Of a DNA stretch of 64,000 bases, positions 9,195-51,001 are shown piece after piece. Numbering within the stretch: the stretch's first letter is position 1; every line of letters begins with the position of its first letter. Below the pieces are notes generated by a model. It was given only the letters and a program-made list of their open reading frames with translations. It was not told the DNA's origin and searched no databases. The position numbers and the translations under genes are program-made. The stretch is from Antedon bifida (Eukaryota > Echinodermata > Crinoidea > Comatulida > Antedonidae), in the NCBI GenBank assembly GCA_963402885.1, contig OY727095.1:19969001-20033000 (forward strand), written 5' to 3'.

Positions 9195-9502
9195 TGCTAC
9201 AGCTGTTAATAATTATTACTTCCATTGCTAGTGTGCCGCGTGCGGAAGTACGCGCGCGCGTTCCGTTGATGAAGGTAAGTATGTCAAAATAAAATGTTTA
9301 AAAACATTTTATGTTTTAGATTATCATATTGATTTAATCTACTATACGATTTATATATAAAAGGTCGTTTTTATATTGTATACAAATTTATTGTTAGAAA
9401 TGCAATTATATGCGATATCAAAAATTGACACCTGCTAGCTGCGAGATTTAAAAATGTGTCTGTTATATAGTAGAAGTAACATACGTTATCAGTGAAAACT
9501 AA
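9195..9502. other. spacer between fold-back element and NACHT gene
   Basis: About 300 bases of single-copy-looking DNA containing a CG-alternating run near 9248-9262. It should hold the 3' untranslated region of the minus-strand NACHT gene; no recognisable element. Confidence 0.4.
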
Positions 9503-12500: not shown

Positions 12501-15500
12501 GTTAAAAGGCGATTTGTTGTGTAGAACATTTATGATTTATTACTGAAACTAAACTCACAATCTACGTAATAATCACATTCATTTATGATCATCCACAATT
12601 TTATGCCGAATGACATACACTTTTGCATTATAGGTCCTAATTAATACAACAGTACCTATAACGTGTATACATGAAAATAAAATGGATTATAGAGGGCGGC
12701 AAACAAAATATATCATTAATCAGAACGAAACTGTGTCAATTAAAATTTTGAATTTGATTAAAAAATATCATGAATTGTTTTTGACATTCTATTTTCAAAT
12801 TAATTATGATTAAATCAACCAAAACGATGTGATTTTATTTGATAAACATTTTTTCAAACATTCTATCTAACCAATCAAAGTTTTACTTAATATACTTTCT
12901 AAATAGGAAATCTTTTTTTTGGTGCAATTATTAACTTTAAATACCATATTATTATGTAATGCGTACATATAACTGAAGTAACTCACTTGAATCTGATTTT
13001 TTCAAACCCAATCTTTCGAGAGTGATAACAAACCAAGATTTTCTGTTTCCTCGTGAGGCAGAGTCATTATATTCTATCATTTCTGAATTTATTTTATTTT
13101 GGAAAATATATATTACATTGCTGATTAACAATTTATCTTTTGATCCATTAGGCAGTATTTTTACCAAATTAATATGAATGTAATCATGTTAACTATTTAT
13201 TTGAAGTTTTTGCAGGGCTAGATAATATCATCCGTGAATAAGTGCATTTTGTAGGATTGGATTTCCAGTAAGTAGCAGTAGACCGGATCAAGCCATCAGC
13301 CAGATGGCGAAAGCTAAAGAATGTGATTAATTTCATTACTGGATTTGTCAAACAAAATGATTTATTTAGATAATATCATGTTTTTAATGCATTAAGAATC
13401 TTTGATTGTTTTCACTTTCAAATTTTCCCATTTATATATAATTGTTTTTAATTTTTTTCGCCAGTATCAGAAACTATAATCACATACTTATTAATGAAGT
13501 TAGTGCAATTGCAACTTTCGTTGGTTTTTTCATTAAATTGTTGTATAGGCGGAATTATAGAGGGCGACAAACATAAGTTTTAATCCATCAGGAGGTGTCG
13601 AAATATGCTCAACAGAGGGCAGCAAATAAAGTTTTCATTCACCAAAATGATTCTGGATGTCAAACAATAATGTTATCGCAGTTCAACAAGTGATTCTCCA
13701 TGGAGAAGGAACCAACAAGATGGCGGCTGCAATCGACCAATCAGATATGCCCTACGCAGTACGCACTACTACGCATGTGTTGAGAGCCTATAATCTGCGT
13801 GAGAACGATACGCAACGCAGTGTGTTAAGCGTATAAACGCGAACGCATTCTATATGATCCTCGTATTAAATAGATTACAAAGAAATTATTCATCCTACTG
13901 TGATTAACAATTATTATATTTAATTGTATAAAAACTTCACTGTGCTTTGACAAGAATATGTGTTGTAATTTATGTGGTCTTAATGTATTATATTAGATTA
14001 TTATTTTTTATATTAAATAATGTTTTTGAACACATTTATGGCCGCAATCTTGTTGGTTCCCCCTCCTGTTTTTGGAATCACTTTTCAGTCTGGAGTACGC
14101 CCTAGCCTTCGGCTTACATCTCACTGGGCCGAACACAATGCGGAGTTTTAGTGAAACGTAATAAAAAAATTTTAAAAGTAATAAAATCTTCCTAAAACCG
14201 TATAAAGTATAAAAATGTCATTATTATTCCTTGCCAGTAATTTTGTAAAATTCTTAATTCCGTTCCAATAATTACAGACAATTCATGTCCCGCCGACTGC
14301 ATTGAGAGTGTGCAATAATATGGAATCGAATCTGGGCAGATTTCTGTTCCGATTATCTTGTAACTGTAACGCTATAGTTTGTAACTTGTTGTGAAGGTCA
14401 TATTGAAAAAGTTAGTTTCGTATTTTTAGTGTGGGAATGTATTCTTTTGATGTTTTTTGCATATTCTTTGTTTTAAATATTATTATTTTGAAAGCAACTA
14501 ACCTGTTTCTGATTTACCCTCTTTTCTCATTGCTTGTTTTTCATTACTACTGGTTGCCACTTGACCTGTTTTAATAATAGAATAATAATAACAACAAAAT
14601 GAAATACTTATTCTACCTAAAAAAACACCGATTGAGAGCACAATTATACTGTATACATTATTAGTAACTAACCTGTTTCTGATTTAACTTCTTTTCGCAT
14701 TCCTTGTTCTTCATTACTACTGGTTGCCACTTGACCTGGTTTAATAAATGACAGGAAAGAACCTAAATTTAGGCTACAATGATATTCTTTACCGGTTGTC
14801 TACTTCTTTAAAAATATCAGTTACTGCATTAATATTTGTCATTGTATATACAAAATAATAATTAACATACCAAAACAACAGCAATGTATTAACATGTACC
14901 TTCAGTCGGCGGACATGGATTTATTGTAGTCAGACTGTTTTTAAAATTTATTTTTACCAAATTAATGTTTTTTACGCTTTTCGCACTAACATACCTTCAG
15001 TCAGAGATGTTACTCTTGCTTCCAGTCCAACTTGTCTTAAATTGTTAATACATTTTTCAATTTTTTCTTCACAGATTATTTTTCTCTGTTCCAAATCCAG
15101 AATCATACTCCAGGCATCTTTATAATTCTTTAACGCACTACCATTGTACAGTGCATCAATTTTTCCCACATCAGCCTGTCTAAGTCCATTTCCGAAAGCT
15201 ACAATTTGTAGTCGATATCGAGTGAACTTATTAATTTCTTGAACTTCGAGAAAAGATTGTTTGAGACGATCGATGACACCAAACTGTTCAGTTACTTTTA
15301 TTGTCTCGTATAGCAATATACGATTGTCTGAACTTAAACGTCCATTTGCCCTTAATTCCTGTAGTAAGTGTATTGTGTTGGTGGCGCTGTCTATGTTCGT
15401 TAATGCAATCAAATCTTGGTACAAAACTTTCAGCTTTGTGACGAGATTACGTTCATCATACCAAGTTGAAACATTTACTAAATCAAGATCAAAATCTATA

Positions 15501-15714
15501 AAATGGTGAAAACAGAACAATTTTAAAAAGTATATTATTATTTAATGCAACACTAGGATTACTGTATATACAGCATTGTCATTTTTTCTGTAATTTTGCC
15601 TATATAATCCGGACCCATCTTTTTTTTATATGTCGGTAGTTATTATACTAATATGTTTATAATATTGTATTAAGTCTTTATGAGTGAATACATTATCAGT
15701 GTACCTGTTGCCAT
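9503..15714 (-). CDS. NOD-like receptor: death-effector-like domain + NACHT NTPase (five exons)
   Basis: Predicted intracellular immune receptor. Coding exons on the minus strand: 15714-15705 (ATG), 15495-14995, 14735-14673, 14565-14503 and 11502-9503 (TAG). Every junction has AG/GT borders and phase 1; the coding total is 2637 nt, exactly 879 codons. Exon 2 carries a death-effector-like helical fold with the hallmark stretch ELRANGRLSSDN. Exons 3 and 4 encode near-identical 21-residue Ser/Thr/Glu-rich linkers. Exon 5 holds the NACHT domain: P-loop GEGGIGKST (near 11278), Walker B LLLLDGLDEL-like motif (near 11030), sensor ILTSRS, and a C-terminal FMPPHKLIVESL segment typical of the winged/helical region. 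Only about one leucine-rich-repeat-like unit follows before the stop, so the LRR array is short or lost. Family role (oligomerising sensor signalling via the death fold) is established; ligand unknown. Confidence 0.8.
11583..12019. mobile_element. MITE-like element in the large NACHT-gene intron
   Basis: CTCCCGTAAGCGGCCACCC at about 11648 is matched by GGGTGGCCGCTTACGGGAG at about 12001-12019, giving a short terminal-inverted-repeat element of about 370 bp. A related degenerate end (TTGTAAGCGGCCACCTCC) lies just left at about 11585-11604, and another degenerate fragment at about 12215-12245, suggesting several old insertions of one family. No coding capacity. Confidence 0.6.
12066..13660. repeat. 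intronic dispersed short repeat (TAGAGGGCG motif)
   Basis: The motif TATAGAGGGCGACAAACA or close variants occurs at about 12082, 12690 and 13555, with a weaker version near 13614, each followed by an AT-rich tail and a variant of ATCAGAA/ATCAGGA. This suggests decayed ends of related non-autonomous elements in the intron. Element boundaries cannot be set from this sequence. Confidence 0.35.
13702..14067. mobile_element. about 365-bp MITE in the NACHT-gene intron
   Basis: GGAACCAACAAGATGGCGGC at 13709-13728 is mirrored by GGCCGCAATCTTGTTGGTTC near 14040-14059; the inverted similarity extends outward to GGAG/CTCC ends. The interior is non-coding. I could not identify a clear target-site duplication. 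Confidence 0.6.
14503..14735 (-). repeat. tandemly duplicated 63-nt exons of the NACHT receptor
   Basis: Two 63-nt blocks, 14735-14673 and 14565-14503, each flanked by a splice acceptor (AACAG or ACCAG) and donor (CAG/GTTAGT), are about 90% identical and both symmetrical phase 1-1. They encode related 21-residue linkers beginning QVATSSNE. Exon duplication within the gene is the simplest explanation; because they are symmetrical, one or both can be skipped without changing frame. Confidence 0.7.
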
Positions 15715-15950
15715 TTTTTCAAATTTCTCTCTTCAATTCTGAAAAATAAGTGTTAAATCGGATCATAATTCACAAATATATCTACTTCCGATAGGCTAAT
15801 GTGTATATACTTAGTAAATGATGATCGTTTCATACTAAGTTCAATGTAACGATAAGATAAACGATTGAACTGTCTGCAGTTTGTTTATATTCGATAGTGA
15901 GGAGCAACCGGGCAATTTATATAATGTTCTTTGTGTCTTGCTACCCGTCG

Positions 15951-16858
15951 GGCGTACTTTAGGAATTATGTTGGACAGGTTGGCAAACTAAACGTCATGA
16001 TTAACACGCGTACTATAGGATTATGTTGGACAGGTTGGCAAACTAAACGTCATGATTAACACGCGTACTATAGGATTATGTTGGACAGGTTGGCAAACTA
16101 AACGTCATGATTAACACGCGTACTATAGGATTATGTTGGACAGGTTGTGGACAGGTTGGCAAACTAAATGTCATGATTAACACGCGTACTTTAGGAATTA
16201 TGTTGGACAGGTTGGCAAACTAAACGTCATGATTAACACGCGTACTATAGGATTATGTTGGACAGGTTGGCAAACTAAACATGTCATGATTAACACGCGT
16301 ACTATAGGATTATGTTGGACAGGTTGGCAAACTAAACGTCATGATTAACACGCGTACTATAGGATTATGTTGGACAGGTTGGCAAACTAAACGTCATGAT
16401 TAACACGCGTACTATAGGATTATGTTGGACAGGTTGGCAAACTAAACGTCATGATTAACACGCGTACTATAGGATTATGTTGGACAGGTTGGCAAACTAA
16501 ACATGTCATGATTAACACGCGTACTATAGGATTATGTTGGACAGGTTGGCAAACTAAACGTCATAATTAACACGCGTACTATAGGATTATGTTGGACAGG
16601 TTGGCAAACTAAACATGTCATGATTAACAAGCGTACTATAGGATTATGCTGGACAGGTTGGCAAACTAAACGTCATGATAAACACGCGTACTATATGATT
16701 ATGTTGGACAGGTTGGCAAACTAAACGTCATGATTAACACGCGTACTATAGGATTATGTTGGACAGGTTGGCAAACTAAACATGTCATGATTAACACGCG
16801 TACTATAGGATTATGTTGGACAGGTTGGCAAACTAAACATGTCATGATTAACCTCACA
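15951..16858. repeat. minisatellite, 55-bp unit, about 16 copies
   Basis: Head-to-tail repeats of a 55-bp unit containing GGATTATGTTGGACAGGTTG and ACACGCGTACTATAG. Some units carry a 2-bp insertion (AACATGTCATG instead of AACGTCATG) and one has a duplicated GGACAGGTTG segment near 16138-16156. Copies are nearly identical, implying recent expansion. It lies between the 5' end of the NACHT gene and the left border of the virus-like block. Confidence 0.95.
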
Positions 16859-16904
16859 CATTAATTGAATATTAGTCAAAACTAAACGAATTTACTGTAT
16901 TACA

Positions 16905-19900
16905 CTAGCATGTTAAAATATAAAAACAGAAAGATAGGCCTAAGTATGTATCTACCTGCTCTCGACTTTTTAACATGTTCTCTGCATCATGTTTTAACGA
17001 AGCAGAGTTTATTTTTTCGGCATCAAGTTGCGACGCCAAATCGTCAACATGTCGGCTCATCAACTGTTCATTTTTTTGTACGCTCGACTGATACAATCTG
17101 CTCTTTTCTTCGTACGTTTGCAAATCAGTTTCCAACTGTTGAATTCGTTGCCTGTACGTTGTCTCCGAAATCGTGTTGGCCGTGTCCAATCTTCTGTTCA
17201 GCACGCGCAATTCACCAACTTCGTTTGTGAGCGCTTCGATGCGACGACTCGTTTCCTCGTCAACGTGTTCTTTTGACGATATCAATTCGGATTGCTTGCG
17301 CTTCAAATTCAATTCATGTGCGCGTGCTTCGTCCGTCTTTTTGTTAAGCAAGGCTTTCAGAGTGTCTGACTCGTCGACATTTTGCATTTCAGTGTCGTGA
17401 AGTTGTTGCTTCATTTCGTTCACAAGACGTTCACTGTTTCGCAGTTCGCCTTCGGTCTTGTCCAGTTTCGTTTCCAACTCTTTAATTTTTGCGTCGCTCA
17501 CTCGCGTCTTTTTTTCATTTTCTCTCGACGACTCTGCATTCCTGGTGGCCATGGTCTTTTTGAACTCTTCGTGTTCTACTCGTTGAGTCTCGAGCGTGTT
17601 CAAAGCCGTCCGTCGTTCTTCTTCGGCTTTTGCCTTTGCCCATTGCATGACTTCAATCTGCGATTGGGATTCGGCATTAGAATCGGGCTGAGATGATATC
17701 CAATCTTCAATATCGTAGAGTTTTACGTGCATTGTACTATTGTGAGCGTTCACATCGTCCGAGATTTCACGCAATCTTTGAACGGTGTCTTCGTCCAAGT
17801 TGGGCAAATCGTCGTTTGTTGAAAGTACGGTGCTGTTGGCCGTGTTCACGTAAGGAGCGAGCAGTTGACCGATGCTAGGTAAATCATCATCTTCATCACC
17901 GTCACCTTCTTCTTCTTCGTTTACAATTGCGGTGTTCACCGGCATGCTTGCTATGGCAATAGATTCGAGCACAGAAATTGTATCATCGGTGTGTGTACGC
18001 GCGTCAGCAGTTTCGGTGTTCATCACCGCCGGCGTCGTACCAGATTCGAGCACAGAAAGTGTGTCTTGGGTGGTGTTTGCCGGCATGCTTGCTATGGCAA
18101 TAGATTCGAGCACAGAAATTGTATCATCGGTGTGTGTACGCGCGTCAGCAGTTTCGGTGTTCATCACCGCCGGCATCGTACCAGATTCGAACACAGAAAG
18201 TGTGTCTTGGGTGGTGTTTGCCGGCATACCTTCCATGACCAGAGATTCGAGCACAGAAAGCGTATCTGATGCGTTTGTAGTACGCGCGTCGTCGTCAACA
18301 GTTTCGATGTTCACCTGCTGCACCACCGGCATATTATCAACAGTTTCGGTGTTCACCACCAGCATACGAGATTCAGAATCGGTAGTAGTGATGTTGGCGG
18401 CACGTTCGCGCGCTTTAGCCTCCAAACTTAGCAGATGTTGGTAACTGAGTTGCGTTATTTCGAACCGACTTTGTTCGACCATTGCCATGCCTTCGGTGGC
18501 CGTGTCGAGTGAAATCTTGCGCGTTGATTCAGGAGATCTAACCGGTATATTGCAAAGAGCGTTGAGTAGAATAGCGCATACGTTCGCCTCGTAATGGCAA
18601 CAGTCTCTCCATGGCAAGTCATCTTGGGCAGTGGGCGTTCCGAACGGAGGTCGTTCACATTGAAACGGTTTAAGTTCGTCGATCGTTCCAGTAACGAGTG
18701 CATGATCTCTTAGACGAATCTTGAGAAATTCGTGTTTTTTAATGTACGACACGAGCGCACCAAACAAATGGTCAAAGTCAATGTCCAAAGCATTTCTTTC
18801 GTATGGCGCAAAGTCCTCTTGTATCTTTTTTGCCAACTTTCTGATCCATTCGACGGTGGGACGTTCCGCTGAGTCAACGGTCAACCACGGAGCGTGTGTT
18901 GCGTTCCATTTACTCTCAGCTGCCGTGATTTCCGCGTCGATTCTTTCAAAGTTCCAGCTGTTTGTGATCTCTTCACTCTGTCCCAACACGAGATTCCACA
19001 TGTCGGCTCTGGCGAGCAGTGTAGCATCGCCGATGTGATGAGCTATGCGATGTAGCACGAGGCAAGCGAAAATCATGTACAGATTCGGTCTTTTGTCGAA
19101 CAGCGCGCACACGTATTTCATCAATCGAAACGTGGTTCCGATTTCCACGTTTTGAATGTGCGTACACGCTTTCAACAATCTCTCGAAATCGTCTTTACTT
19201 AATCCGGTTTCGTTGAACAGAGCATCACGATCGCTGGAATTGTTACCTTGCGTAGATGTGTAGTGTTTCAGAAAAAAATCTTTCATGGTCAGTCTATTGC
19301 CGGCCTGAAACTTTCCCAGCTGTAGAAACGATTTCTCTTTTCCTGCGCCGCCACCGCCTATTACAGGCGACTGTGAATGTATACCTGGAACGGCAGTCAT
19401 TGTCTTGAGATGTTTTGCAAAGTGTATCTTTTGTTGTATTAGATTACCGTCTTTGATGACGATTGAGACCCGCACTTGTTTCGAATTTAGAAAGCTACCG
19501 CCGAGAAACAAACTGTCGCACAATTTACGCGTTCTCTCTTTCATGTCAGCATGTTTGTTGATTTCTGTGATGATTTTAATCATTTTGATTATTTCACACA
19601 GACTTTCGTACAAGCTTTTAAGATTCTTTGCGTCGGCAACAACTATGCGACCAGAAACGAACGCGTTTGAAAACTGTTTTGAAAAGCCGTCCATTCGAAG
19701 TAGCTGCGCTTTTAGACCCAGCATGGATCCATCTGGAGGGTAGCCGGATCTGTAAGCAGTCGATACCATTCTCATGAGCGTCGTTGATGTGAGCGTCGGG
19801 TCTGCGAGTTCGTCGAGAACTCGTCCAAGATACGGCGTAATTTTTTTCGACTGTTCGCCAACCTCTTTATTATCATCCCGTCCTTTTCTCTTTGTCGGCC

Positions 19901-19955
19901 TCTGTCTAACAGCCGTCGTGTCCATCAACGTTTCGGTCTGTGATGATGTATACAT
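16905..19955 (-). CDS. large coiled-coil protein of the herpesvirus-like block, function unknown
   Basis: An open frame of 1026 codons from 19985; the second in-frame ATG at 19955 or the third at 19925 is a more natural start because the first ten codons are low-complexity. Visible features: a basic, nuclear-signal-like cluster (RPTKRKGR) near the N-terminus; a globular region to about residue 560 rich in Cys, Trp and His; two 47-residue repeats (about residues 588-681); an acidic stretch with EEEEGDGDEDDD; then a long Glu/Lys/Arg coiled coil (about residues 760-1010). The last coding bases sit about 50 nt from the minisatellite, and CAG/GTAGAT near 16955 resembles a splice donor, so the natural C-terminus may be elsewhere or lost at the junction. 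A structural or tegument-like role is possible by composition only; I do not recognise the family. Confidence 0.7.
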   Translation of the reverse strand: MYTSSQTETLMDTTAVRQRPTKRKGRDDNKEVGEQSKKITPYLGRVLDELADPTLTSTTLMRMVSTAYRSGYPPDGSMLGLKAQLLRMDGFSKQFSNAFVSGRIVVADAKNLKSLYESLCEIIKMIKIITEINKHADMKERTRKLCDSLFLGGSFLNSKQVRVSIVIKDGNLIQQKIHFAKHLKTMTAVPGIHSQSPVIGGGGAGKEKSFLQLGKFQAGNRLTMKDFFLKHYTSTQGNNSSDRDALFNETGLSKDDFERLLKACTHIQNVEIGTTFRLMKYVCALFDKRPNLYMIFACLVLHRIAHHIGDATLLARADMWNLVLGQSEEITNSWNFERIDAEITAAESKWNATHAPWLTVDSAERPTVEWIRKLAKKIQEDFAPYERNALDIDFDHLFGALVSYIKKHEFLKIRLRDHALVTGTIDELKPFQCERPPFGTPTAQDDLPWRDCCHYEANVCAILLNALCNIPVRSPESTRKISLDTATEGMAMVEQSRFEITQLSYQHLLSLEAKARERAANITTTDSESRMLVVNTETVDNMPVVQQVNIETVDDDARTTNASDTLSVLESLVMEGMPANTTQDTLSVFESGTMPAVMNTETADARTHTDDTISVLESIAIASMPANTTQDTLSVLESGTTPAVMNTETADARTHTDDTISVLESIAIASMPVNTAIVNEEEEGDGDEDDDLPSIGQLLAPYVNTANSTVLSTNDDLPNLDEDTVQRLREISDDVNAHNSTMHVKLYDIEDWISSQPDSNAESQSQIEVMQWAKAKAEEERRTALNTLETQRVEHEEFKKTMATRNAESSRENEKKTRVSDAKIKELETKLDKTEGELRNSERLVNEMKQQLHDTEMQNVDESDTLKALLNKKTDEARAHELNLKRKQSELISSKEHVDEETSRRIEALTNEVGELRVLNRRLDTANTISETTYRQRIQQLETDLQTYEEKSRLYQSSVQKNEQLMSRHVDDLASQLDAEKINSASLKHDAENMLKSREQVDTYLGLSFCFYILTC
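17941..18262 (-). repeat. 141-bp coding tandem repeat inside the coiled-coil gene
   Basis: The segment starting GGCATGCTTGCTATGGCAAT at 17941 recurs 141 bp later at 18082, and a third diverged partial copy starts at about 18223. It encodes a 47-residue unit with the submotifs DTISVLES and TLSVLESGT. The repeat keeps frame, as expected if it expanded while the protein was under selection. Confidence 0.85.
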
Positions 19956-20052
19956 GATGATGATGATTATCTTTGAATTTACCATTATGTCATTAATGAC
20001 ATGTTGCGCATACGTACGTCGTGTGAAGAAGAAGAAGAAGAAGAGCGAGAAA

Positions 20053-20427
20053 ATGTCATGGCGTCGATCGGCCGATGAACTAATTCAACGCAATTTCTGG
20101 TACATGACCACATCAACTGTAAATTCATCATCATCAACACCACCACCATCAACAACAACAACGACACAATCTTCATCATCATCATCATCATCATCAAAAC
20201 CGTTATTGAAGAAAGAAAACGTAATCAAGAAGAAAAAACACAAACAAAAACGTACTAAGATTCTCGATTTAATTTTGCCAAATGATAACGACAAATCTTT
20301 TCATTCGCCATCCTCTGTAACAACCTCGAGCACGCTGTCAGTTGAGAGGTCGACACCTGAAATATCGGAAACATCAACCGATCACCTGGCATGGGTTTCA
20401 GTTGAGGAAAGCGTGGTTTTAGAATGA
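20053..20427 (+). CDS. small Ser/Thr-rich basic protein, unknown (virus-like block)
   Basis: 124-residue frame starting at an ATG (20053) with a purine at -3. It starts MSWRRSADELIQRNFWYM, then a Ser/Thr/Pro-rich low-complexity stretch encoded by TCA repeats (20120-20200), then a Lys-rich stretch (KKKKHKQKR) that could act as a nuclear signal. Its last 173 bases overlap, antisense, the end of the gene at 20255-21151. It is divergent from the coiled-coil gene. I do not recognise it; low complexity means it could be a chance frame. Confidence 0.4.
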   Translation: MSWRRSADELIQRNFWYMTTSTVNSSSSTPPPSTTTTTQSSSSSSSSSKPLLKKENVIKKKKHKQKRTKILDLILPNDNDKSFHSPSSVTTSSTLSVERSTPEISETSTDHLAWVSVEESVVLE

Positions 20428-21151
20428 CGCTTTCCGCCGAACGAATACCATTCAACGTGCTCTTTAGTAAGTACACGACCGTTTCGTGGCCGTTGCTGAG
20501 TAGAAAGTCTTTCTTGGCATATTGTAACGTCGAGTAGTACATGAACACAGACATAACGTCGAAAATAAAGTCTACCACGTCGTCCAGCATGTTTTCGTCT
20601 AGAAGCGCTGCATCCGGTAATCTGTTTGCTGATACGTATTTTAGAAAGGTGTATCTGATTACGGACACGATGTTCTGTTTGCCCATGTTCTCCAAAATCA
20701 TTTCACAGGCCTTGTGTTCAAAGAAATTTACGTTGTTGTACTTGCATCGTTTCTTTCGATCGTACAATCGTTTCAGAACCTGACGTACGGTTGTGCCGAA
20801 ACGAAACATTTTATCGTGTTTTTTTCGCGTCGTTGTCGTCTTTCTAACGTCTTGCATGCCGTTGTATAGCGGCGTATCGAGTCCAACGACAATCGGTTCA
20901 TAGTCGTCTGTATAGAATTCTTTACCAGTCAATGCGCATCTTCGAGTGTTGTGATCTAAATTTTCCACGACGCAGTCTGCCGACAATGAACAGGTGTGCG
21001 TGCGTAGTGACAACATGCACACGAAATTCTCACCGTCTTGCATGGGTTGCACGAACGTACATCTATTCGGTACACATTCGTGAAGTTCGTCCACGTGATA
21101 TATGTCGAAACGATTTGCTTGTAGATACGCGTTCAGAGCAGCTGTTGTCAT
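20255..21151 (-). CDS. 298-aa Cys/His-rich protein, antisense in a terminase intron
   Basis: An uninterrupted frame from ATG 21151. The N-terminal third has a Cys/His pattern suggestive of metal binding: C at about residues 26 and 31, then C, HTC, C and C between residues 44 and 70, ending near CALTGKEFY. The middle is basic (KRLYDRKKRCKY) and the rest helical. The gene starts only 18 bases upstream, on the opposite strand, of the terminase exon at 21170, so it lies within the inferred upstream terminase intron. Herpesviruses are known to place unrelated genes in the terminase intron on the opposite strand. No specific family is recognised; a zinc-binding virion or capsid-associated protein is a guess. 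Confidence 0.65.
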   Translation of the reverse strand: MTTAALNAYLQANRFDIYHVDELHECVPNRCTFVQPMQDGENFVCMLSLRTHTCSLSADCVVENLDHNTRRCALTGKEFYTDDYEPIVVGLDTPLYNGMQDVRKTTTTRKKHDKMFRFGTTVRQVLKRLYDRKKRCKYNNVNFFEHKACEMILENMGKQNIVSVIRYTFLKYVSANRLPDAALLDENMLDDVVDFIFDVMSVFMYYSTLQYAKKDFLLSNGHETVVYLLKSTLNGIRSAESVILKPRFPQLKPMPGDRLMFPIFQVSTSQLTACSRLLQRMANEKICRYHLAKLNRES

Positions 21152-21169
21152 CTTTATTTTTGTTTTCAG

Positions 21170-23110
21170 GCTTCAAGAGGAACCGGTTGTGATATGGGAT
21201 GGATGGACGAGTATCCGTGGATAAAGCAAACGGCTATGCTATCAACTCTGCCAATCTTTCAACCTAAGAACGTGTCGGTTCTTTTAACATCGTCGATGAC
21301 TTCGAGTGATCACTGGTCGCAAGAGTTTGTGAATATTAAACACGATGGACGTGCACTGGTTAAATACATTACTCAGTCGTACCTGTGCGATGCGTGCTTC
21401 GAGAAAGGAACGCGAACAGTGTGCGCTCACAGGCGACATTTGGTACCGGAACACATTGATGGAAACGACGGTAATGTCGTTCAGCAGATGATGAACCTCA
21501 TAGCCACCGGAAGCTATGAACTAGAGTGTATGGGCATTCCGGTCTGTTCACCGTCTTCACTCGCCGAGCGACTTTTTTCCGGTAAACTGCTAACCAAACT
21601 GTTTTCAGACGAAAGAAGATCGACTACAAGATCTGGCTTCTCATCGGGTCTGTTGATTGCCGTCGATCCAACTCCGTCGGACGTGTCCGGCATTGGATTG
21701 GTTGCCGGTGTGTTAACGACGTCGGACGTTAGACAGGTAAGTCGAACGGGTGGTATTTTGCACGCGGTGCTTCTTCTCTCCATAATTCTTCGAAGCGCGT
21801 ACGTAGCGTGCCCTGGGAGCCCGGCCCGAATCGTAGACAGACCACGACAACTGGTATTCTGTACTCGATTTCGAATCGTTGCAACGGCCACGGCCAACGG
21901 TGATCCGCATCCGACAGAATGCCACATTGGCTGATCGTACGTGTTGGTCAACAGCTGTACGATGATCTTGCGAACGCTATCTATTATCCAATGTTTATCG
22001 GTTGGCGTTGATGCTCTGTACTCACGTTCTACATCTGGTAAAAATGTCAAATTGAACATTTCTATTGCCTGTAAGAGAAACGTGTTCAATTGCGATATCT
22101 CTCGTTGTCGACCCATTTCAAATTGCGTGGCGGCCATCATTGCCGTTCTTGTGTAAGCAAGAATCGATTGTTTTTGTCGTTGTTCGACCATATCTTGTAC
22201 GGTTGCATCATTCATTTCCACCAACAACACTGTCTCTCTACCACACGTTCTCACAATCTTTTCGACAATAGGTAATGCGGATGCATTAATCTCGTCCGTT
22301 ATAGCCGCCTTGTCTATAGCGCTCTTCCATTCGAAAAATATTCTTTGTCGTTCTTGTAGAAATTCCAGATTGCAATACACGGGATGAAATGCATTCGTCA
22401 ACATTACGCTACCAATTGATTCTCTTTTTCCTTTTCTTTTTCTTTTATATATATATATATATATTTAAACTTTATTGATACAGTTTCTCTCTCTCTCTCT
22501 CCCTACTATACGTTGAGACGAACACAAGAAAAGAAAAGCATTTAATAATCGTAATAGCCTTTATTTTACTACGCAGATACTTGCTTTGAAACACCACGTT
22601 GCACATATGGATCGTATGGATTCTTTACTGGACATGCACGCCCAACTAATAATAGACACGGTGAACAGGACATTGGCTACGTACAATCAGTTGACATTCA
22701 TGCCAGTTCGTGTGTACGTAGAACGTAATACATCGCACGCGCACGCCGCTCGCATGGCCAAACAAGTAACGGATCGTTTTGCCGGTACGTCAGTCGACAT
22801 ATCTTTCGAAAAAGAGAGACGTCGAACGGACGGGCGTAAGTGTGTCGGAATTTGGACAAGAGACAAAGGAAATCTGGTACATTTGTCACAAATGTTGCTG
22901 GAGAACGATCGAGTCGTGTTTGCACAAGACATCGATGACGAACAGATGAGCATTTTACAGGATCAACTGTGTAACTTCAGAAGACTCGTAAAATCCGACG
23001 GTAAAATCACGATAAGTGGAAAGACAGCTGGTGTTCGTGATGATCTTGCCATGACGTTTATTCTGTGGTTGGCGTGGACTTGCTTTCTTTCTAATAAAGT
23101 TTATCAATAA
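21170..23110 (+). CDS. herpesvirus-like terminase large subunit, two 3' exons (5' ATPase exon missing)
   Basis: DNA-packaging motor ATPase/nuclease. Exons 21170-21736 (189 codons) and 22577-23110 (177 codons plus stop), both phase 0, with a strong acceptor (TTTTTGTTTTCAG), donor (CAG/GTAAGT) and acceptor (TTTTACTACGCAG). The first exon begins just before a Walker B-like DMGWMDEYPW, followed by a TSSMTSSD coupling-like motif, a Cys/His group (residues CDAC and CAH, near 21390-21430) and AVDPTPSD (near 21660), matching the first metal-binding Asp of the RNase H-like nuclease. The second exon has VYVERN (second acidic site; a Gly usual in the family is Arg) and GVRDDLAM near the C-terminus (third acidic site). 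The Walker A exon is not found upstream, so this copy cannot encode a whole protein here. AATAAA signals overlap the stop. The order of motifs and the intron position support Herpesvirales rather than tailed phage. Confidence 0.82.
21514..22404 (-). CDS. 296-aa protein encoded antisense in the terminase intron, unknown
   Basis: An open frame from ATG 22404 covering most of the 840-bp terminase intron and continuing 223 bases into the antisense of the upstream terminase exon. The first two thirds look like a normal helical protein (residues such as HPVYCNLEFLQERQRIFFEW); the last third, antisense to the exon, is Ser/Pro-rich and lower in complexity, so the functional product may depend mostly on the intron-located part. 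Position is analogous to intron-embedded genes of vertebrate herpesviruses, but I see no sequence signature that identifies it. Confidence 0.55.
   Translation of the reverse strand: MLTNAFHPVYCNLEFLQERQRIFFEWKSAIDKAAITDEINASALPIVEKIVRTCGRETVLLVEMNDATVQDMVEQRQKQSILAYTRTAMMAATQFEMGRQREISQLNTFLLQAIEMFNLTFLPDVEREYRASTPTDKHWIIDSVRKIIVQLLTNTYDQPMWHSVGCGSPLAVAVATIRNRVQNTSCRGLSTIRAGLPGHATYALRRIMERRSTACKIPPVRLTCLTSDVVNTPATNPMPDTSDGVGSTAINRPDEKPDLVVDLLSSENSLVSSLPEKSRSASEDGEQTGMPIHSSS
22405..22576. repeat. AT and CT microsatellites before the last terminase exon
   Basis: Short spacer with an alternating TA run (about 22447-22466) and a CT run (about 22487-22501), inside the terminase intron just upstream of the acceptor at 22576. 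Confidence 0.8.
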
Positions 23111-23178
23111 AAAACAGTTTCAACTTCATTTCTTTTGTCTACATCTCGAGTCTATTAGCTTTTAAAATCGGCACATGT

Positions 23179-23817
23179 CTATGTTCGATATTTCAAGAAG
23201 CCGATTCCAGCCACAAACACAATTATCATCATCTTAATCATCAATTTCGATTGTACTCGTTGTGCTGAGGAGAAGGAGGAGGAGGAGGACGTTCGTCGTT
23301 CGCGCACATTTACTGCAACGAACAGCTCAAGACCTTTCTCCGTTAATCTTGGTGCAATAATCAACTTTTGAAAGTTGACGCCAAACTTTTTCCGTAACTT
23401 TGAGATTATGGCTGGTAACCAGAAAGAAGTGTGAACATAGAATTTATAATGTATAGTTTCTGGCGTTTCGTACGTACACTCGGCCATCTCTAATCCTTTA
23501 GTACCGTTCACACCCATCACCGCCTCCTCTTCCTCCTCCTCCTCCTCATCGTCGTCATCATCTTCTTCTTCTTCTTTTGAAGGTTCGATATATAAAATAT
23601 ATTTGATTTTCTTGTTTGTACTTTTTGGCTTGGATACGTTAATCGAAATTCCAGCCGATTTGGTGACGGCATACAATTGCGTGAGATCGATCTCTGTTCG
23701 ACCGTCACCCGTCAGCGTTGCACCCCACAAGTCGTCCGTTATCAAGATAGGCTTTGACTTTTCGACAAGTCCACTAGGCAGACTATCCGTAAATCTTTTC
23801 CAAGCATCAATCAACAT
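23179..23817 (-). CDS. 212-aa tail-anchored membrane protein with acidic insert (virus-like block)
   Basis: ATG 23817. A mixed alpha/beta N-terminal part; a long Glu/Asp run (about residues 80-100, from CTC/TCC/TCATCG repeats); a second folded part; a Ser-rich linker; then a single hydrophobic segment close to the end (MMIIVFVAGIGF) followed by a few basic residues. That is the topology of a tail-anchored protein. Herpesvirus nuclear-egress membrane proteins have the same overall size and C-terminal anchor, so this is a reasonable candidate, but topology alone is weak evidence and no specific motif is recognised. It is convergent with the terminase gene, 68 bases apart. Confidence 0.55.
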   Translation of the reverse strand: MLIDAWKRFTDSLPSGLVEKSKPILITDDLWGATLTGDGRTEIDLTQLYAVTKSAGISINVSKPKSTNKKIKYILYIEPSKEEEEDDDDDEEEEEEEEAVMGVNGTKGLEMAECTYETPETIHYKFYVHTSFWLPAIISKLRKKFGVNFQKLIIAPRLTEKGLELFVAVNVRERRTSSSSSFSSAQRVQSKLMIKMMIIVFVAGIGFLKYRT

Positions 23818-24052
23818 TTTTTTGACCGCTGCTGCTGCTGCTGCTTTTGAAATGTGTGGTTATCGGCAAAGAATACTCAAAGTAGTCAATTGTTTGAAAG
23901 TGAATCGAATCGGTGGAAATCACATCACCTCTGGCCAAAATGAATCTTCTGGGTGGGAAAGTAATGCCTCTGACTACGGTCGATAGTAACGTGACCAAAA
24001 AGACTGTTGACAGCATTAGAGCATCCATTGATCAGAGATTCGAGACGCTAAC
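23818..24052. promoter_or_regulatory. divergent intergenic region between 212-aa and portal-like genes
   Basis: 235 bases between two divergent starts. It contains a GCT repeat (about 23829-23846) and overlapping short open frames on both strands, including a 57-codon frame from ATG 23941 that overlaps the start of the next gene in another frame. No TATA-like or defined promoter motif can be assigned. Confidence 0.3.
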
Positions 24053-25453
24053 ATGTTCCTCGACGCAAAAGACTATGCACAACGTGTGTTTGAAAAACGC
24101 AAAACATGCATGACGGCCGTCAATGAAGAGTTTAAGAACAAAACGTTTTATCTACTCGACGAAGAGCACGCCAAACTATTGCGTCGAACGTTCGATCAGT
24201 TGCCAATGTGCATGTGTATACTCAACAGACTGTGTGCATCCATCTCGGTAAAATCAATGTTTGAACATGGAATGCGTGCTAGTGCCGAAGCGATCGTTAG
24301 AACGCAGTCCACAACAGTCGAAATACCATCGCCGTCTTCATGTACAGTTGCCGTCTTTTGTCAAACGTACAAAGAATCCATCGAACGTTTCATACGCGAC
24401 ACCATTCGATGTATATGGATCTATGGATTTGTGGTGACGACGTGTGTCGATGGTCGTCCGGTTGCCGTCGACATGGACGAATGTTTAGTGTTCAGAGACG
24501 ACGAAGGTGATCTGTATGCTAGATCGATTAAAAGTCAATCTCGTTTGCGTGTTGTTGTCGTTCATCGGCCAGGCGTTGACGGTAGAATGCACAGCGCTCT
24601 ATCAAATCTGCTCGCCAGCTGTGAAAACGTACGTCTCTTGACCGAATATCATTTGGCGGCCGTGCGCAATTCGGCCACGAACATTATTGTGACCGGTCCT
24701 AAAATTCAAGCGAAATCTAACCGCATGATTGATGGCGATGATGACGACAACAACAACAACAACACAGAAGACTTGGTAACCGGAGCAGCCGTAGCGAATC
24801 TGATCAAAGCCAGAACCATGGGCGTTCCAATGGCAACGTCTCTACTGGACGACGTTAACAAAACGAGCACTGTAGACGAAAAAGAGAAACTTATCGGCGA
24901 TCTAGTCAGATGCAGAAAGGAGAAGGAAAACTTGAGAAAGAGTTTTCTTTTCGATAAAAGACGTGAACGACACTTGTTACCGGTTATGACGACCGAGGAT
25001 GTTGGTGACGAGAGAAGTATGTTGGCGTCCAGATTGGATGTAAAAACTCAATCGGGACTCGAACAGGCATCCGCCCATCTCGATGTTCTCGTCAGAAACG
25101 TGCTATTGGGATCAATACCGGTGTCGGGGGGAGGCGCCGGCAACGTTGCACGCCACGGAACAACGTCTGCGCTTCCAGCGAAAATGTTACAGCAGATTGT
25201 CAGCGATTGTTCGGCATCGTGGCAAGATTTCATCGTCAGTTCACTGCTCGACGATTGGATGAAAGAATACGGCGTACCGCTGAAACCATGGACAAAGAGA
25301 GCGTTTGAGGACATCGAAATGATGTTGCCTCTTCTGCCCTACTTTCGATCAGGCTGTGGACGGCGTATGCTCGCCGAAATGCTCGACGTTTCCGAATATG
25401 ATTTCACGTCAGCTTTTCAGCTTACTACTACTACTACTACTACTTCTTATTGA
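24053..25453 (+). CDS. candidate portal protein of the herpesvirus-like block
   Basis: 466 residues from ATG 24053; the frame is closed by a TGA just upstream. The layout resembles portal proteins of herpesviruses and tailed phages: a helical N-terminal part, a segment IYGFVVTTCVDGRPVAVD leading into a beta-rich part with an acidic/aromatic turn, a segment with VHRPGVDGRMHSALSNLLA, an Asp/Asn low-complexity insert (from 24735), a charged helical stretch like a stem helix, then a Gly-rich loop and a helical crown-like C-terminus. Portals form the dodecameric ring through which terminase pumps DNA, so proximity to terminase fits. The call rests on pattern and context, not on a diagnostic motif. 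Its end overlaps the next, convergent gene by 45 bases; both ends are low-complexity. Confidence 0.45.
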   Translation: MFLDAKDYAQRVFEKRKTCMTAVNEEFKNKTFYLLDEEHAKLLRRTFDQLPMCMCILNRLCASISVKSMFEHGMRASAEAIVRTQSTTVEIPSPSSCTVAVFCQTYKESIERFIRDTIRCIWIYGFVVTTCVDGRPVAVDMDECLVFRDDEGDLYARSIKSQSRLRVVVVHRPGVDGRMHSALSNLLASCENVRLLTEYHLAAVRNSATNIIVTGPKIQAKSNRMIDGDDDDNNNNNTEDLVTGAAVANLIKARTMGVPMATSLLDDVNKTSTVDEKEKLIGDLVRCRKEKENLRKSFLFDKRRERHLLPVMTTEDVGDERSMLASRLDVKTQSGLEQASAHLDVLVRNVLLGSIPVSGGGAGNVARHGTTSALPAKMLQQIVSDCSASWQDFIVSSLLDDWMKEYGVPLKPWTKRAFEDIEMMLPLLPYFRSGCGRRMLAEMLDVSEYDFTSAFQLTTTTTTTSY

Positions 25454-26191
25454 TCGTCGAAAGAGAGAGAATCTGTGTTGTTTCTTTATGGAATTCAAAA
25501 CGGATGCATGCAGCACTGTCGGTCGCACTGCACCATCGGGAAAGAGAAGCGGTGCGCACGCAACAATAGTACCGTGCTCGAGTTTTATTTTTCTGTTGAC
25601 AATCTGTATTTTAAATTCGTCGGCAGCAGCAGCAGAAGCAGCAGCAGCAGCAACAGACTGTTTGAAAACAAATGTGTCTACAATGCCGTTACAGCCGATG
25701 CGTTGAACAGTGTTTTCGTGTTTCACCTCGCAGATCCATTCACCGGGCGTAGGATGCAATGGTGCCGTTGTTTTCACGAACCTTCCCGACGGTACGTGTA
25801 CAGTGATGACGGTGTTGCCGTGGAACGCTACAATCGTGTTTGCGTCAAAGAACGAATGCACACTGGTACGTTTCACGTTCTTTTGCTTTTCGTTTTCGTC
25901 CATGGAAATTGGATGTCTGAGTAGGACGTGCCACGTTTTTCTGGTACGTCGCAACATCACCAGAAGATGATCACCCGCTTGATCCACGTACCATGCGCAT
26001 AGGTCACGGCCGTGTTGACACGTTGCGTGCGACGTGTACAATTCACCAACGACGCCCGTATCCAACGACTGTTCCACGCTCCACGCACCACTATCCAAAT
26101 CGAACGTTTCAAATTCTTTAGCTCCACCACCGCTTAGTATCAACAAATCTTCGTTCATTCTCGTCCAAAGAGTTAAGTTGGGTAATACCAT
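25409..26191 (-). CDS. unknown beta-rich protein, probably cut at its 5' end by the host junction
   Basis: Frame open from the stop at 25409 leftward-reading to ATG 26191 (260 residues) and remaining open to 26341 across the apparent junction with AT-rich host-like sequence. ATG 26191 lies within about 15 bases of where composition and homology change, so the true N-terminus may be lost. Residues include short beta-strand-like repeats with Trp and Gly-rich turns (ILSGGGAKEFETFDL, GRDLCAWYVDQAGDHLLV), suggestive of a propeller-like fold, an Ala-rich run from GCAGCAGCAGC repeats, and a Ser-rich C-terminus. No family recognised. Confidence 0.5.
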   Translation of the reverse strand: MVLPNLTLWTRMNEDLLILSGGGAKEFETFDLDSGAWSVEQSLDTGVVGELYTSHATCQHGRDLCAWYVDQAGDHLLVMLRRTRKTWHVLLRHPISMDENEKQKNVKRTSVHSFFDANTIVAFHGNTVITVHVPSGRFVKTTAPLHPTPGEWICEVKHENTVQRIGCNGIVDTFVFKQSVAAAAASAAAADEFKIQIVNRKIKLEHGTIVACAPLLFPDGAVRPTVLHASVLNSIKKQHRFSLFRRSIRSSSSSSSKLKS

Positions 26192-26199
26192 ATATAGGG

Positions 26200-29142
26200 G
26201 ACTGGCATCTGTTGAAAAATTACCAAGCCCCTTTAATGAAGGTATATTTGGATGCAGGATTGAAGACCATACTAGAGAGGTGCGGATATCAAGGTGCAAA
26301 ACTTGTATCAGTGGCCAATGGTAATAGTTTTGATGCCACACATCAGTTTTTGTTACAGATTTGGGAAAGCTTTTACAGGTATCAACTAGGTATATTTCTT
26401 AAATTCAGCACAGATGCCACAACACAAGCAATAGAGACAGATGTCCACAATATTATTGATGCCTCTTCACAGGGTACAACCTCATGTGTAACAAATCACA
26501 ATATTCAATTACTTTGTGACAATGCTGGTGTAGTCACATTAAAGCAGATGTTCACAAAATTTAATGATGACAAATCAAATATTAATGCATCTTACAGGTT
26601 CTGGAACAACTTTTCTTCATCGTGACATGTTTCATTATATTGCACTTTATCTTTCAATCCGTGGTCGTAACTTTGATCTAAGAAATGCCTCATTGATGAA
26701 AATGGGTCCAATGTTTCATGCACTTGATCGACAGAATTATCTACGCATAATACCATACCATATTTCTGATCTGAAGAAATGTCCATCTGAGGTTATGACT
26801 GTTTTGAAAAGAGGTGGATTTGTTGCTAGTTTGACAGGAAACAGTTGGTCATGTGTAGGAATCGATGAAGCCCATGAAATGGTCATAAACAAGAACATAA
26901 AAATGGCAATGACAAGTTCTGATGGAGATTATCTATCGAAACTCCTACACTATTTGCCCCATAGAACTAAGGCCATGGCAAATCTAACATCAGTGACAAA
27001 ACGAAAATGTTCCTCTACTCCCCCATTTTTATCTCCAACACTCATTAGGTATGAGGAACAGAATGTTCTAGCCATGTTATCGGAAATTAGCAAGACTTCT
27101 GTTTTTATTTCAGATTCTACTGACACTTGCATTAGACATCTGTTTACAAATGAGCCTGCTGCACTAAAAGCAAACACTGATTTATCTAAGTTTTATTCTA
27201 TCGGAGAAGAGAGCTACCTTTCTTTTGTAAAATTTGTTGTTCTAGCTGACCCATCAGTGAAGCGGCCTGTTAGAAGGAAACACAACATTTCTACATTCAC
27301 GCCACCCAAGCAAACTGTTTCAAAACAAAAATCAAAGCTGAAGGATGCAGAGCTGCAACTAAAAATTATGAAACTTAGGTATGCTAATCAGTGTTCCTCA
27401 GACAGCAAAAGAGGCAGCCATCAACAGTGCATTCCTCTTCCTAAAGCTCTTTGCAATGATGATGGTTTGCCTTTCAAATCCAACAAAGCAATTTCGTCTT
27501 CTGTCTATAATAAAAAATATCCAGATTCGTTTACAGATACGTATGTTACTACAGATGATACACAAACAGCTTACATAGCAGAAGGTATGATTATCATTCA
27601 CAATTACAAGCCTCTACCAAGCCATGAAACATTTATTGATTATTTTAATTTTATTTTCAGGCAATGGGTTCAAAAACCATTTGAGGAATACAAAGCTTCG
27701 GAAGTTCATATTTTATTTGATCATCCAAGTAGACATGGGTTGAGCCCGAAGGATCTCGAAAGATCTAGAAGAGATAAAGGCACTAACAATACACTTTATA
27801 TTCAGTTGAGGATGATGCAAAAATCCCAAAACAATGGTCTTCTTTTTTGGCAGACCGCCGCAATAAACGTTCCTTGGTCAATAAACTATCTTCCTTTCTT
27901 CTGTTTAAAGCAATGAATTGTTTAAAACCTAATGAAACATTCATTACAGCAGGAGGGTTTGATGGCATTGACAGAGACAAGGCGTTTCTAAGCTGACCAT
28001 GTTTTAAACAAGAAGAAGCAAAGTACACATCAAATCATGAAGAAGGCGACTCCCGTGTGTGGTTTCATTGTAAACAAACTCCTTGCCCAAATGTAATCAT
28101 CTATAGCCCAGACAGAGATATAATACACATTGGAATACCGCTAATGAAACATATAGATAAGAATGTCAATGTTCAACTCAGAGCAAAGAGAGGTGACAAT
28201 CTGTTTTTGAATATGAATGCATTGTTGCACAATATACAGAATGATCTTCAGTTAGACAAACTAATTAATTTCAAAGCTGAAGTCCCAGAGTTCCTTCAAA
28301 TCTTATTTATCTGTAGTGGATGTGACTTTGTTTCTTTTTTCAGGGCACACTCTAAGAAGACATTTTTGGATGCCTTTTATGACAATTGTAGTTTTATTAC
28401 AGGTGGATCATTTAAGGGAAAGTTAAGTCGGGTTAAATTTGATCAAAGAGATTGTGGATTTTTAGCATTTTTGCGACTAGTTGCATGTGTTTATCACAAG
28501 AAGTACCACAATGCCTTTAATGGATGTACAGCTGAACAAGTGTTTGTAGAAGTAAACAATGAAGGAATTAATTCTAATCTTTCTGAAATTAAGACACATT
28601 CATTGTTTATAAAACATGTTCGTGATACTATAGACTGCCGAGTGGGACTTGAGGAACTCATGATTCCTTCTGATGATGCATTAAGATTGCATTGGTACCG
28701 CACATGTTATGTGTCTCAGATGTGGTCTCAAGCAGGAGATGCATTTGTTGAGCTTCCAGATATGAATGAGTATGGTTGGATTACAGTTGCAGATAGAGTG
28801 TCTGTAGTGTGGGATAGTGATGATAATTTAAAGAAAGTTAGAGATGATGCAAAATACCTAAAAAGAGGTTGTTCCTGTAAGTCTGGCTGTAAAAGCAATC
28901 AATGCTCATGTAGAAAATCAGATAGAAAGTGTGGAGTAAGTTGTAAATGTATAAACTGTGTTAATGTACATAGTTCAAGTGAGCAGGTTTATGCAAGTCA
29001 AGGAGATGGAACTAATATAGAGATGGTGGGTAATGTTGATTATGAAGAATGTAGTTCTGATGACAGTTGTAGTGATATTGATTTTGATGTAGAGTGTGTT
29101 TATAATGAATATGATGATTTAGAAGAGATTTTGAAACTGTAA
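26200..29142 (+). pseudogene. multicopy-type protein with PIN/FEN-like region and tesmin/TSO1 CXC domain, frameshifted
   Basis: Three overlapping open blocks (about 26230-26625, 26600-27810, 28040-29142) in different frames read as one protein of roughly 900 residues, broken by at least three frameshifts or stops (near 26610, 27810 and 27990-28040). The middle has DHPSRHGLSPKDLERSRRDK; the C-terminal block has YSPDRDIIHIGIPL and FICSGCDFVSFF, patterns of a PIN/FEN-like nuclease fold, then a Cys-rich CXC domain beginning GCSCKSGCKSNQCSC and an acidic tail. Such CXC proteins occur in many copies in invertebrate and fish genomes and behave like mobile or expanded genes, but the mechanism is not known to me. 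Its 5' end abuts the virus-like block. Almost intron-free structure suggests a retrocopy or transposon-borne gene. Confidence 0.65.
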
Positions 29143-46104: not shown

Positions 46105-46381
46105 TTCTCTTCATGTACAAATACAAAAAAACAACTTACATTATATTAAACGAAAGAATGGAAGTATTTAATTAAAAAAAATATAAAAAAAACTAAAGAA
46201 CAGAAGCTAAAAACCGTAAAAAAAGTATTTAAAACAAATTGATGTAAAAAGATATAGATAAACATTGAATTTTCTTCTAAAATCGTAGTACTCAAATATA
46301 GCATTAAAAATATGAAGTAATTCAAATGAGCATTTACAAAATTGGTCACAAAAGCTTTTTTTTTTTGTTCTGAGAAGACTA

Positions 46382-50720: not shown

Positions 50721-51001
50721 TTATTTCTCTTCATGTACAAATACAAAAAAACAACTTACATTATATTAAACGAAAGAATGGAAGTATTTAATTTAAAAAA
50801 ATATAAAAAAAACTAAAGAACAGAAGCTAAAAACCGTAAAAAAAGTATTTAAAACAAATTGATGTAAAAAGATATAGATAAACATTGAATTTTCTTCTAA
50901 AATCGTAGTACTCAAATATAGCATTAAAAATATGAAGTAATTCAAATGAGCATTTACAAAATTGGTCACAAAAGCTTTTTTTTTTTGTTCTGAGAAGACT
51001 A

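What the first reader, a model, noticed from the sequence alone, without database searches (positions are those of the whole stretch)
16905..26191. Herpesvirus-like genome fragment embedded in an AT-rich invertebrate locus
Seen: a 9.3-kb block of seven or eight tightly packed, mostly uninterrupted genes on both strands, with visibly higher GC and plentiful CG dinucleotides, between a minisatellite and a CXC-type pseudogene. One gene is a spliced terminase and another looks like a portal. Known: terminase plus portal define the herpesvirus/tailed-phage packaging module, and a spliced terminase points to Herpesvirales. Inference: an endogenous or recently integrated invertebrate herpesvirus (malacoherpesvirus-like or a new lineage). 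Open frames suggest recent arrival or selection.
Basis: partly seen in the sequence, partly recalled or inferred. Interest (0 to 1): 0.92.

Follow-up and report, generated by a model that had tools for sequence, protein, structure and literature searches.

The report
Herpesvirus-like fragment in an animal chromosome
A 9.2-kb piece of a very divergent herpesvirus-like genome sits in a chromosome that looks like an invertebrate animal's, and larger near-identical copies and older decayed pieces lie elsewhere in the same genome, so such viruses have probably entered this germline more than once.

Summary
The block is real. Over 16905-26191 it has GC 0.45 and CpG o/e 1.44, against 0.31 and 0.75 outside; its borders are 16955 and 26165. 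It is a truncated fragment. The genome holds two more young copies (98-99% identical): one on C1 spanning at least 71 kb with a family-B DNA polymerase, one of about 13.6 kb on C14. A host LINE is nested in the C1 copy, and C7 and C10 hold older decayed pieces, so mis-assembly is very unlikely. The herpesvirus link rests on the terminase. Exon 3 and its seven relatives match Pfam DNA_pack_C in 8 of 8; a profile finds herpes UL15/UL89 as 5 of 6 PDB hits. Exon 2 has a Walker-B-like motif; exon 1 (Walker A) is missing here but present at C1. Three exons with antisense genes in the introns match the alloherpesvirus layout. No library supports the portal call, the UL92 match is weak, and malacoherpesvirus affinity is untested. 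Most likely: a recently endogenised, truncated piece of a divergent Herpesvirales-like virus, possibly a new family. Capsid genes, RNA and host species were not determined.

The parts
16955..26165 (.). viral block: truncated fragment of a larger herpesvirus-like provirus
   Evidence: 99% identical to C1:16411119-16420309; two pieces 98% and 100% identical on C14; viral-looking sequence continues past both borders at C1 and, identically in the stretch printed, past the right border at C14
16955..20084 (-). part of a long coiled-coil gene (about 1040 codons here; its 3' end is cut off at the left border)
   Evidence: open frame; a coiled-coil-like frame lies on the far side of the border in C1 (L024:8309-10000); no family match above chance
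17931..18290 (.). 141-bp tandem repeat inside the coiled-coil frame, 2.5 copies
20258..21172 (-). ORF305, antisense in terminase intron 1, next to exon 2; weak UL92-family match
   Evidence: PF03048 E 0.0012, 19.2 bits against cut-off 21; 49% relative P0009 has no Pfam hit at E<=1
21170..21736 (+). terminase exon 2 (Walker-B-like MDE, LLTSS, first nuclease Asp in AVDP; motifs read by eye)
   Evidence: splice sites TTTTCAG|G and ACAG|GTAAGT, 567 bases, phase 0; start conserved in a relative, read antisense in P0009; no Pfam or PDB match of its own beyond one chance hit
21517..22464 (-). ORF316, antisense, mostly inside intron 2; its 3' part overlaps exon 2
   Evidence: open frame; no family match above chance
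22577..23110 (+). terminase exon 3: RNase-H-like nuclease part (VYVERN ... DDLAMTF)
   Evidence: PF02499 E 6.9e-4 alone, below cut-off; 8 of 8 members of A1 match PF02499, best 8.9e-6; PDB profile hits UL15/UL89
23182..23859 (-). ORF226, unknown; Asp/Glu-rich
   Evidence: open frame; no family match above chance
24053..25450 (+).
   Evidence: open in C8, C1 and C14, the C14 copy with gaps of 6, 2 and 7 bases; relative P0001 55%; no packaging-protein match
25412..26165 (-). 3' part of a viral gene that has 639 codons at C1, cut at the right border
   Evidence: L025:166-2085; junction
14675..16953 (.). left host flank: repeated host segment with a DED-like frame and a minisatellite; interrupted by the viral block
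   Evidence: paralogues L005, L006, L012 match to 16953 and go on into other sequence, not found in the window; DED below cut-off
26166..29142 (+). right host flank: CXC-type frames, repeated in the host
   Evidence: 72% copies on C8, C9 and C12 and weaker ones on C8 and C10; PF03638 below cut-off

Best explanation
Window 16955-26165 is a truncated, recently endogenised piece of a large, very divergent herpesvirus-like DNA virus. Shown: three chromosomes of this genome carry nearly identical viral DNA; the largest copy (C1) spans at least 71 kb, holds a family-B DNA polymerase and all three predicted terminase exons, and is interrupted by a host LINE. Inferred: the virus copies its DNA with its own polymerase in the nucleus, its terminase RNA is spliced by the host, and the terminase motor fills capsids; the DNA entered the germline by end joining rather than by a transposase or an integrase. 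The window copy lacks terminase exon 1 (Walker A) and is cut inside genes at both ends, so it cannot encode a whole packaging motor and is most likely inert, with open frames because it is young.
For: Terminase exon 3: PF02499 in 8 of 8 sequences, best 8.9e-6; 5 of the 6 PDB sequences at E<=1 are UL15/UL89, best 4iox E 0.0011. Exon 1 at C1: PF02500 E 0.0095 with VPRRSGKN; the UL15 Walker A of duck enteritis virus is VPRRHGKT (PMC3079670, passages). Both introns GT-AG and phase 0 with antisense ORFs inside. DNA polymerase B at C1, 1.3e-20. Copies on C1 and C14. Host LINE at C1 inside a frame that is whole on C14. Three host paralogues match the left flank up to the same base. Older decayed pieces on C7 and C10.
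Against: Single-sequence matches lie below Pfam cut-offs: PF02499 19.1 against 22.8 bits, PF02500 16.2 against 25, UL92 19.2 against 21. Exon 2 matches nothing relevant by itself, nor does exon 1 in the PDB. The polymerase's PDB hits are cellular, archaeal and engineered family-B enzymes, with no herpesvirus chain among the 60. No hit to herpes major capsid or portal families in the genome, though the controls were silent too. P0009 does not support UL92. No RNA evidence for splicing. Changed codons between C8 and C1 are 4 synonymous and 14 other, so substitutions show no clear purifying selection.
Confidence: 0.85

Rival explanations
1. It comes from a mirusvirus-like virus of a protist rather than from an animal herpesvirus; mirusvirus terminases are related to those of herpesviruses and are split by introns that can hold genes.
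For: Mirusvirus terminases can have ATPase and nuclease parts about 30 kb apart and genes nested in introns (PMC12768974, passages); the matches to herpes profiles are weak.
Against: The integration lies in a genome with a NACHT frame and a sub-threshold DED frame, which looks animal. The paper says that mirusviruses predominantly infect unicellular eukaryotes and that the intron-rich ones lack DNA polymerase, whereas this one has one. Three exons, with one ORF between exons 2 and 3, is the alloherpesvirus layout.
Confidence: 0.08
2. It is a transposon that has captured herpesvirus genes and moves as a unit, in the manner of Teratorn.
For: Several near-identical copies on different chromosomes.
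Against: The copies have different ends: C1 continues past both ends of the window copy and C14 past the right one. No terminal inverted repeat or target duplication is visible at the window borders (by eye). Among the frames scanned with Pfam, the reverse-transcriptase and CXC/DUF6589-like ones lie in host sequence.
Confidence: 0.05
3. Mis-assembly or contamination: viral or foreign contigs joined to host contigs.
For: GC and CpG contrast are abrupt; no reads could be inspected.
Against: Copies on three chromosomes with different borders, a host LINE nested in viral sequence, older decayed copies, and host paralogues that match up to the border.
Confidence: 0.03

Closest known systems
Alloherpesviridae (fish and amphibian herpesviruses: IcHV1, SalHV-1)
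   Same: Terminase gene of three exons (IcHV1 ORFs 62, 69, 71; SalHV-1 ORFs 72/80/82; PMC3230846 passages; PMC13030845 section 9); the ORF numbers imply several genes between exons 1 and 2 and one between exons 2 and 3 (my inference), as here. Family-B DNA polymerase.
   Different: The host genome looks invertebrate; similarity to herpes profiles is near the detection limit; the polymerase match lies in one open frame of 752 codons, whereas IcHV1 and EsHV-1 polymerases are spliced.
Endogenous malacoherpesvirus-like genomes of lancelets and of the annelid Capitella
   Same: Large integrated herpes-like DNA in invertebrate or basal chordate genomes, GC about 45%, in several blocks (BelcheriHV-1: PMC12373286, passages and section 8; Capitella: PMC5552708, passages).
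   Different: Those have terminase hits to OsHV-1 at E 1e-95 to 1e-105. No malacoherpesvirus sequence was at hand here, so the distance was not measured; each terminase exon of this virus is below Pfam cut-offs on its own.
Teratorn and other endogenous herpesviruses of vertebrates
   Same: Herpesvirus DNA carried in a host genome (PMC10175614 passages; sturgeon AciHV-3, PMC12031113, search listing and start of abstract only).
   Different: No inverted repeat was seen at the window borders (by eye), and copies have different ends.
Mirusviricota
   Same: Related terminase, gene-bearing introns (PMC12768974 passages).
   Different: Described there as predominantly in unicellular hosts; the intron-rich ones lack DNA polymerase.

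Membership tests
Herpesvirales | terminase large subunit with ATPase and RNase-H-like nuclease | tested here: met
   nuclease exon; ATPase part weaker (exon 1 PF02500 E 0.0095, below cut-off; exon 2 no match); motifs read by eye
Herpesvirales | terminase gene spliced, with other genes inside the intron (shown for ortho- and alloherpesviruses) | tested here: met
   splice sites in DNA, antisense ORFs inside; no RNA
Herpesvirales | family-B DNA polymerase | tested here: met
   C1:16464409-16465293, PF00136 1.3e-20, 74.1 bits; no herpesvirus chain among the 60 PDB sequences matched, so its kinship is open
Herpesvirales | HK97-type major capsid protein | tested here: inconclusive
   PF03122: no match, controls silent; about 24 kb of the C1 span was not read
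Herpesvirales | portal protein | tested here: inconclusive
   PF01763: no match in the genome, controls silent; ORF473 matches no packaging family
Herpesvirales | icosahedral capsid, tegument and envelope | not testable with these tools
   needs virions
Alloherpesviridae | terminase of three exons | tested here: met
   against PMC3230846 and PMC13030845
Alloherpesviridae | polymerase and terminase phylogeny inside the family | not tested
   no named herpesvirus proteins could be fetched for a tree
Malacoherpesviridae | close protein similarity to OsHV-1 / HaHV-1 | not tested
   no reference proteins at hand; only Pfam, PHROGs, NCBIfam, PDB and unnamed relatives from public assemblies were used
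Mirusviricota | mirusvirus-type capsid and terminase clade | not tested
   no mirusvirus sequences or profiles were compared
Teratorn-like transposon | fixed ends with terminal inverted repeats in all copies | tested here: not met
   copies have different ends; no inverted repeat at the window borders (by eye); the ends of the C1 copy were not reached

The most novel reading that the evidence does not exclude
A new family-level lineage of Herpesvirales that infects invertebrates, keeps the alloherpesvirus-type three-exon terminase, and has entered this host's germline repeatedly (young copies on C1, C8, C14; decayed pieces on C7, C10); relatives exist in public assemblies (terminase exon 3 at 41-43% and 78%, ORF305 at 49%, ORF473 at 55%). 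This would place the split-terminase layout outside the fish and amphibian viruses and earlier in the order.
Probability: 0.45. Interest if true: 0.8.

Novelty: new member of a known kind. Interest (0 to 1): 0.66.

Why it matters
A 2021 paper title speaks of 'the only two herpesviruses infecting invertebrates' (PMC8537636, listing), and endogenous herpes-like genomes have been reported in lancelets and an annelid. A further, very divergent lineage with young and old copies in one genome, and with the three-exon terminase known from fish viruses, would help to root Herpesvirales and make the age and host range of the order testable by sequence.

Tried and rejected
UL92: kept as weak only, since P0009 has no Pfam hit at E<=1. 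Viral contigs: terminase alone (no pattern hit), A1 (42 pattern hits), A2 (31), A3 (32), none a relative; genome contigs with A1: 29 pattern hits, none a relative. PF02499 in the whole genome: no match, controls silent, although the terminase exon is there, so the misses for PF03122 and PF01763 mean little. In the ORF473 protein search only the 7,992 candidates sharing most words were scored. Host species: two paper searches by assembly size and one for bryozoan genomes gave no identification; 'invertebrate' is my inference from genome size and the NACHT and DED-like frames. A transposon with fixed ends was considered and rejected. My first idea that intron 1 is 16 kb was wrong; by hand from the coordinates it is about 9.6 kb at C1. 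A paper that seems central (Rosani et al. 2023, on tracing invertebrate herpesviruses) is known to me only from reference lists; a DOI that I recalled for it was not held, nor was PMC7172337.
Full report
What is there. The window lies at C8:19969001-20033000 of a 315.6-Mb genome in 27 contigs. Between 16905 and 26191 the sequence has GC 0.452 and CpG o/e 1.44, against 0.307 and 0.75 in the rest of the window (1-15950 and 28001-64000), and long open frames on both strands. A DNA search of the same genome found the block again on C1 (16411119-16420309, 99%) and in two pieces on C14 (98% and 100%); the other matches listed were short. The shared stretch is window 16955-26165. At these two places the C1 copy goes on with other high-GC, open-frame sequence, and in the 60 bases printed C14 agrees with C1 past the right one (over some 6.5 kb). 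The window copy is therefore a 9,211-bp fragment of a larger genome, cut inside a gene at each end.

The larger copies. On C1, GC- and CpG-rich sequence with packed frames was read from about 16395855 (L059; judged viral by composition and frames only) through L024, L002, L025 and L060 to 16439399, with host-like stretches between, and again at 16463800-16467299, where a family-B DNA polymerase lies in an open frame of 752 codons (Pfam 1.3e-20) and another frame ends at 16467033. The span is thus at least 71 kb; about 24 kb of it (16439400-16463799) was not read. A host LINE (RVT_1, 3.4e-38) fills L025:7893 to L060:1504; its end has 38 further listed matches at 97-100% elsewhere in the genome. 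It splits a frame that is whole (396 codons) on C14, with a short repeated TATT at its ends (by eye). On C14 the colinear viral sequence runs from 10642377 to 10660263 with a 4.3-kb insert. Other C1 frames include a 1063-aa protein with laminin-G domains (7.1e-33), which by eye has a signal peptide and a membrane anchor, and a 533-aa frame with a sub-threshold XRN match (E 0.0061).

Terminase. The frame at 22517-23110 matches Pfam DNA_pack_C below the cut-off (E 6.9e-4). A protein search found seven relatives (78% and 41-43% identity). Aligned as A1, all 8 of 8 match DNA_pack_C, best 8.9e-6 (three other families match 1 to 3 members), and a profile search of the PDB returned six sequences at E<=1, of which five are herpes terminases UL15/UL89, best E 0.0011; the sixth is a retinoic-acid-binding protein, which was also the best hit of the single sequence. 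Exon 1 at C1 (L024:4026-4748) carries VPRRSGKN and matches DNA_pack_N at 0.0095, below the cut-off; the UL15 Walker A of duck enteritis virus reads VPRRHGKT (PMC3079670, passages). Exon 2 (21170-21736) carries a Walker-B-like MDE and AVDP, which I read by eye as the first of the Asp-Glu-Asp triad described in PMC6466031 (passages); E69 and D175/D176 of exon 3 are invariant in A1. Exon 2 alone matches no Pfam family at E<=1 and only one unrelated PDB entry at E 1.5. The splice sites are AAC|GTGAGT, TTTTCAG|GCT, ACAG|GTAAGT and CGCAG|ATA; the exons are 723, 567 and 534 bases (the first counted from the start of its open frame, the last with its stop), all phase 0. Intron 1 at C1 is about 9.6 kb (by hand) with five frames of 239 codons or more, four of them antisense; intron 2 is 840 bp, with ORF316 antisense across it.

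A relative with the same order. ORF305 has a 49% relative, P0009, whose longest contig is 19,013 bp, the same length as that of the 78% terminase relative P0002, so probably the same contig. The extra N-terminal residues of P0009 are the antisense reading of a terminase exon 2: 23 of 27 residues agree with the antisense of window exon 2 (counted by eye). Terminase exon 2 and ORF305 are thus neighbours in another virus too. ORF305 itself hits Herpes_UL92 at E 0.0012, below the cut-off, but P0009 hits no Pfam family, so I do not rest on it. In rat cytomegalovirus, genes R91-R94 lie antisense between the terminase exons (PMC3079670, passages); that R92 is the UL92 homologue is recalled.

Age and integration. 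C8 and C1 differ by 22 substitutions and 7 gaps over the first 8,518 aligned columns; 6 of 7 gaps are multiples of three. Counted frame by frame, C8 against C1 gives 4 synonymous and 14 other changed codons (the second row of a 207-base stretch of ORF473 is dropped, and two of the eight frames, ORF316 and exon 2, overlap). That shows no clear purifying selection. The C14 copy of ORF473 has gaps of 2 and 7 bases as well as 6 but is listed as open. C7 and C10 hold short pieces 76-92% identical to L024 in which 18 of 29 gaps are not multiples of three: older and decayed. The left flank is a repeated host segment; three paralogues (L005, L006, L012) match it up to 16953 and then go on into other sequence, which is not found in the window. 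The right flank is another host repeat. No inverted repeat or target duplication is visible at the borders (by eye), so end joining is the likeliest route. The host looks animal: NACHT 5.4e-21 and a sub-threshold DED frame in the window. The species was not identified.

What it is called. Alloherpesvirus terminases have three exons (PMC3230846, passages), and the exon numbers of IcHV1 (62, 69, 71) and SalHV-1 (72/80/82; PMC13030845, section 9) leave one ORF between exons 2 and 3 and several between 1 and 2, as here. Herpes-like integrations are known from lancelets (149,856 bp, PMC12373286, section 8) and Capitella (PMC5552708, passages). So the kind is known; the lineage looks new, but I had no named herpesvirus sequences to build a tree. 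One survey of 31 invertebrate phyla says that Malacoherpesviridae-like reads were rare (PMC11097642, passages).

Limits. No structure prediction, no reads, no RNA, no capsid gene found, about 24 kb of C1 unread. Whole-genome family searches are insensitive here: PF02499 missed a terminase exon that is present, so the misses for capsid and portal families say little. The polymerase matched no herpesvirus chain in the PDB.

Noticed in passing
window 9506-11533 (-) and 14975-15541 (-): NACHT frame (5.4e-21) and a DED-like frame (1.8e-5, below cut-off): immune-type genes; the second lies in a segment found at least three more times in the genome.
   Followed up: partly
window 15952-16852: Minisatellite of 55-bp units, 16 copies, next to the viral block.
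   Followed up: no
window 43275-53177 and 62807-63476: 30-bp and 101-bp repeats recurring at intervals of about 4 to 4.6 kb in the first stretch, suggesting a larger tandem repeat.
   Followed up: no
window 56350-57901 and 60777-62294: Arrays of 366- and 373-bp units that by eye look like the same repeat in opposite orientation.
   Followed up: no
window 2005-2197 and 8960-9152: Two 83-bp-unit arrays with the same consensus 6,955 bases apart, a likely local duplication.
   Followed up: no
window 36618-38756 (+): Reverse-transcriptase frame (RVT_1, 1.8e-20) of a LINE-like element.
   Followed up: no
L024:779-3967 (-): 1063-aa laminin-G protein in the C1 viral copy, perhaps a captured host gene used as an envelope protein (inference).
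   Followed up: partly
L060:4567-6165 (+): 533-aa frame with a weak XRN exonuclease match (E 0.0061); one match in the genome, itself.
   Followed up: partly
L027:4446-8752: 4.3-kb insert, mostly of lower CpG, in the C14 viral copy, at an (AT)n run.
   Followed up: no
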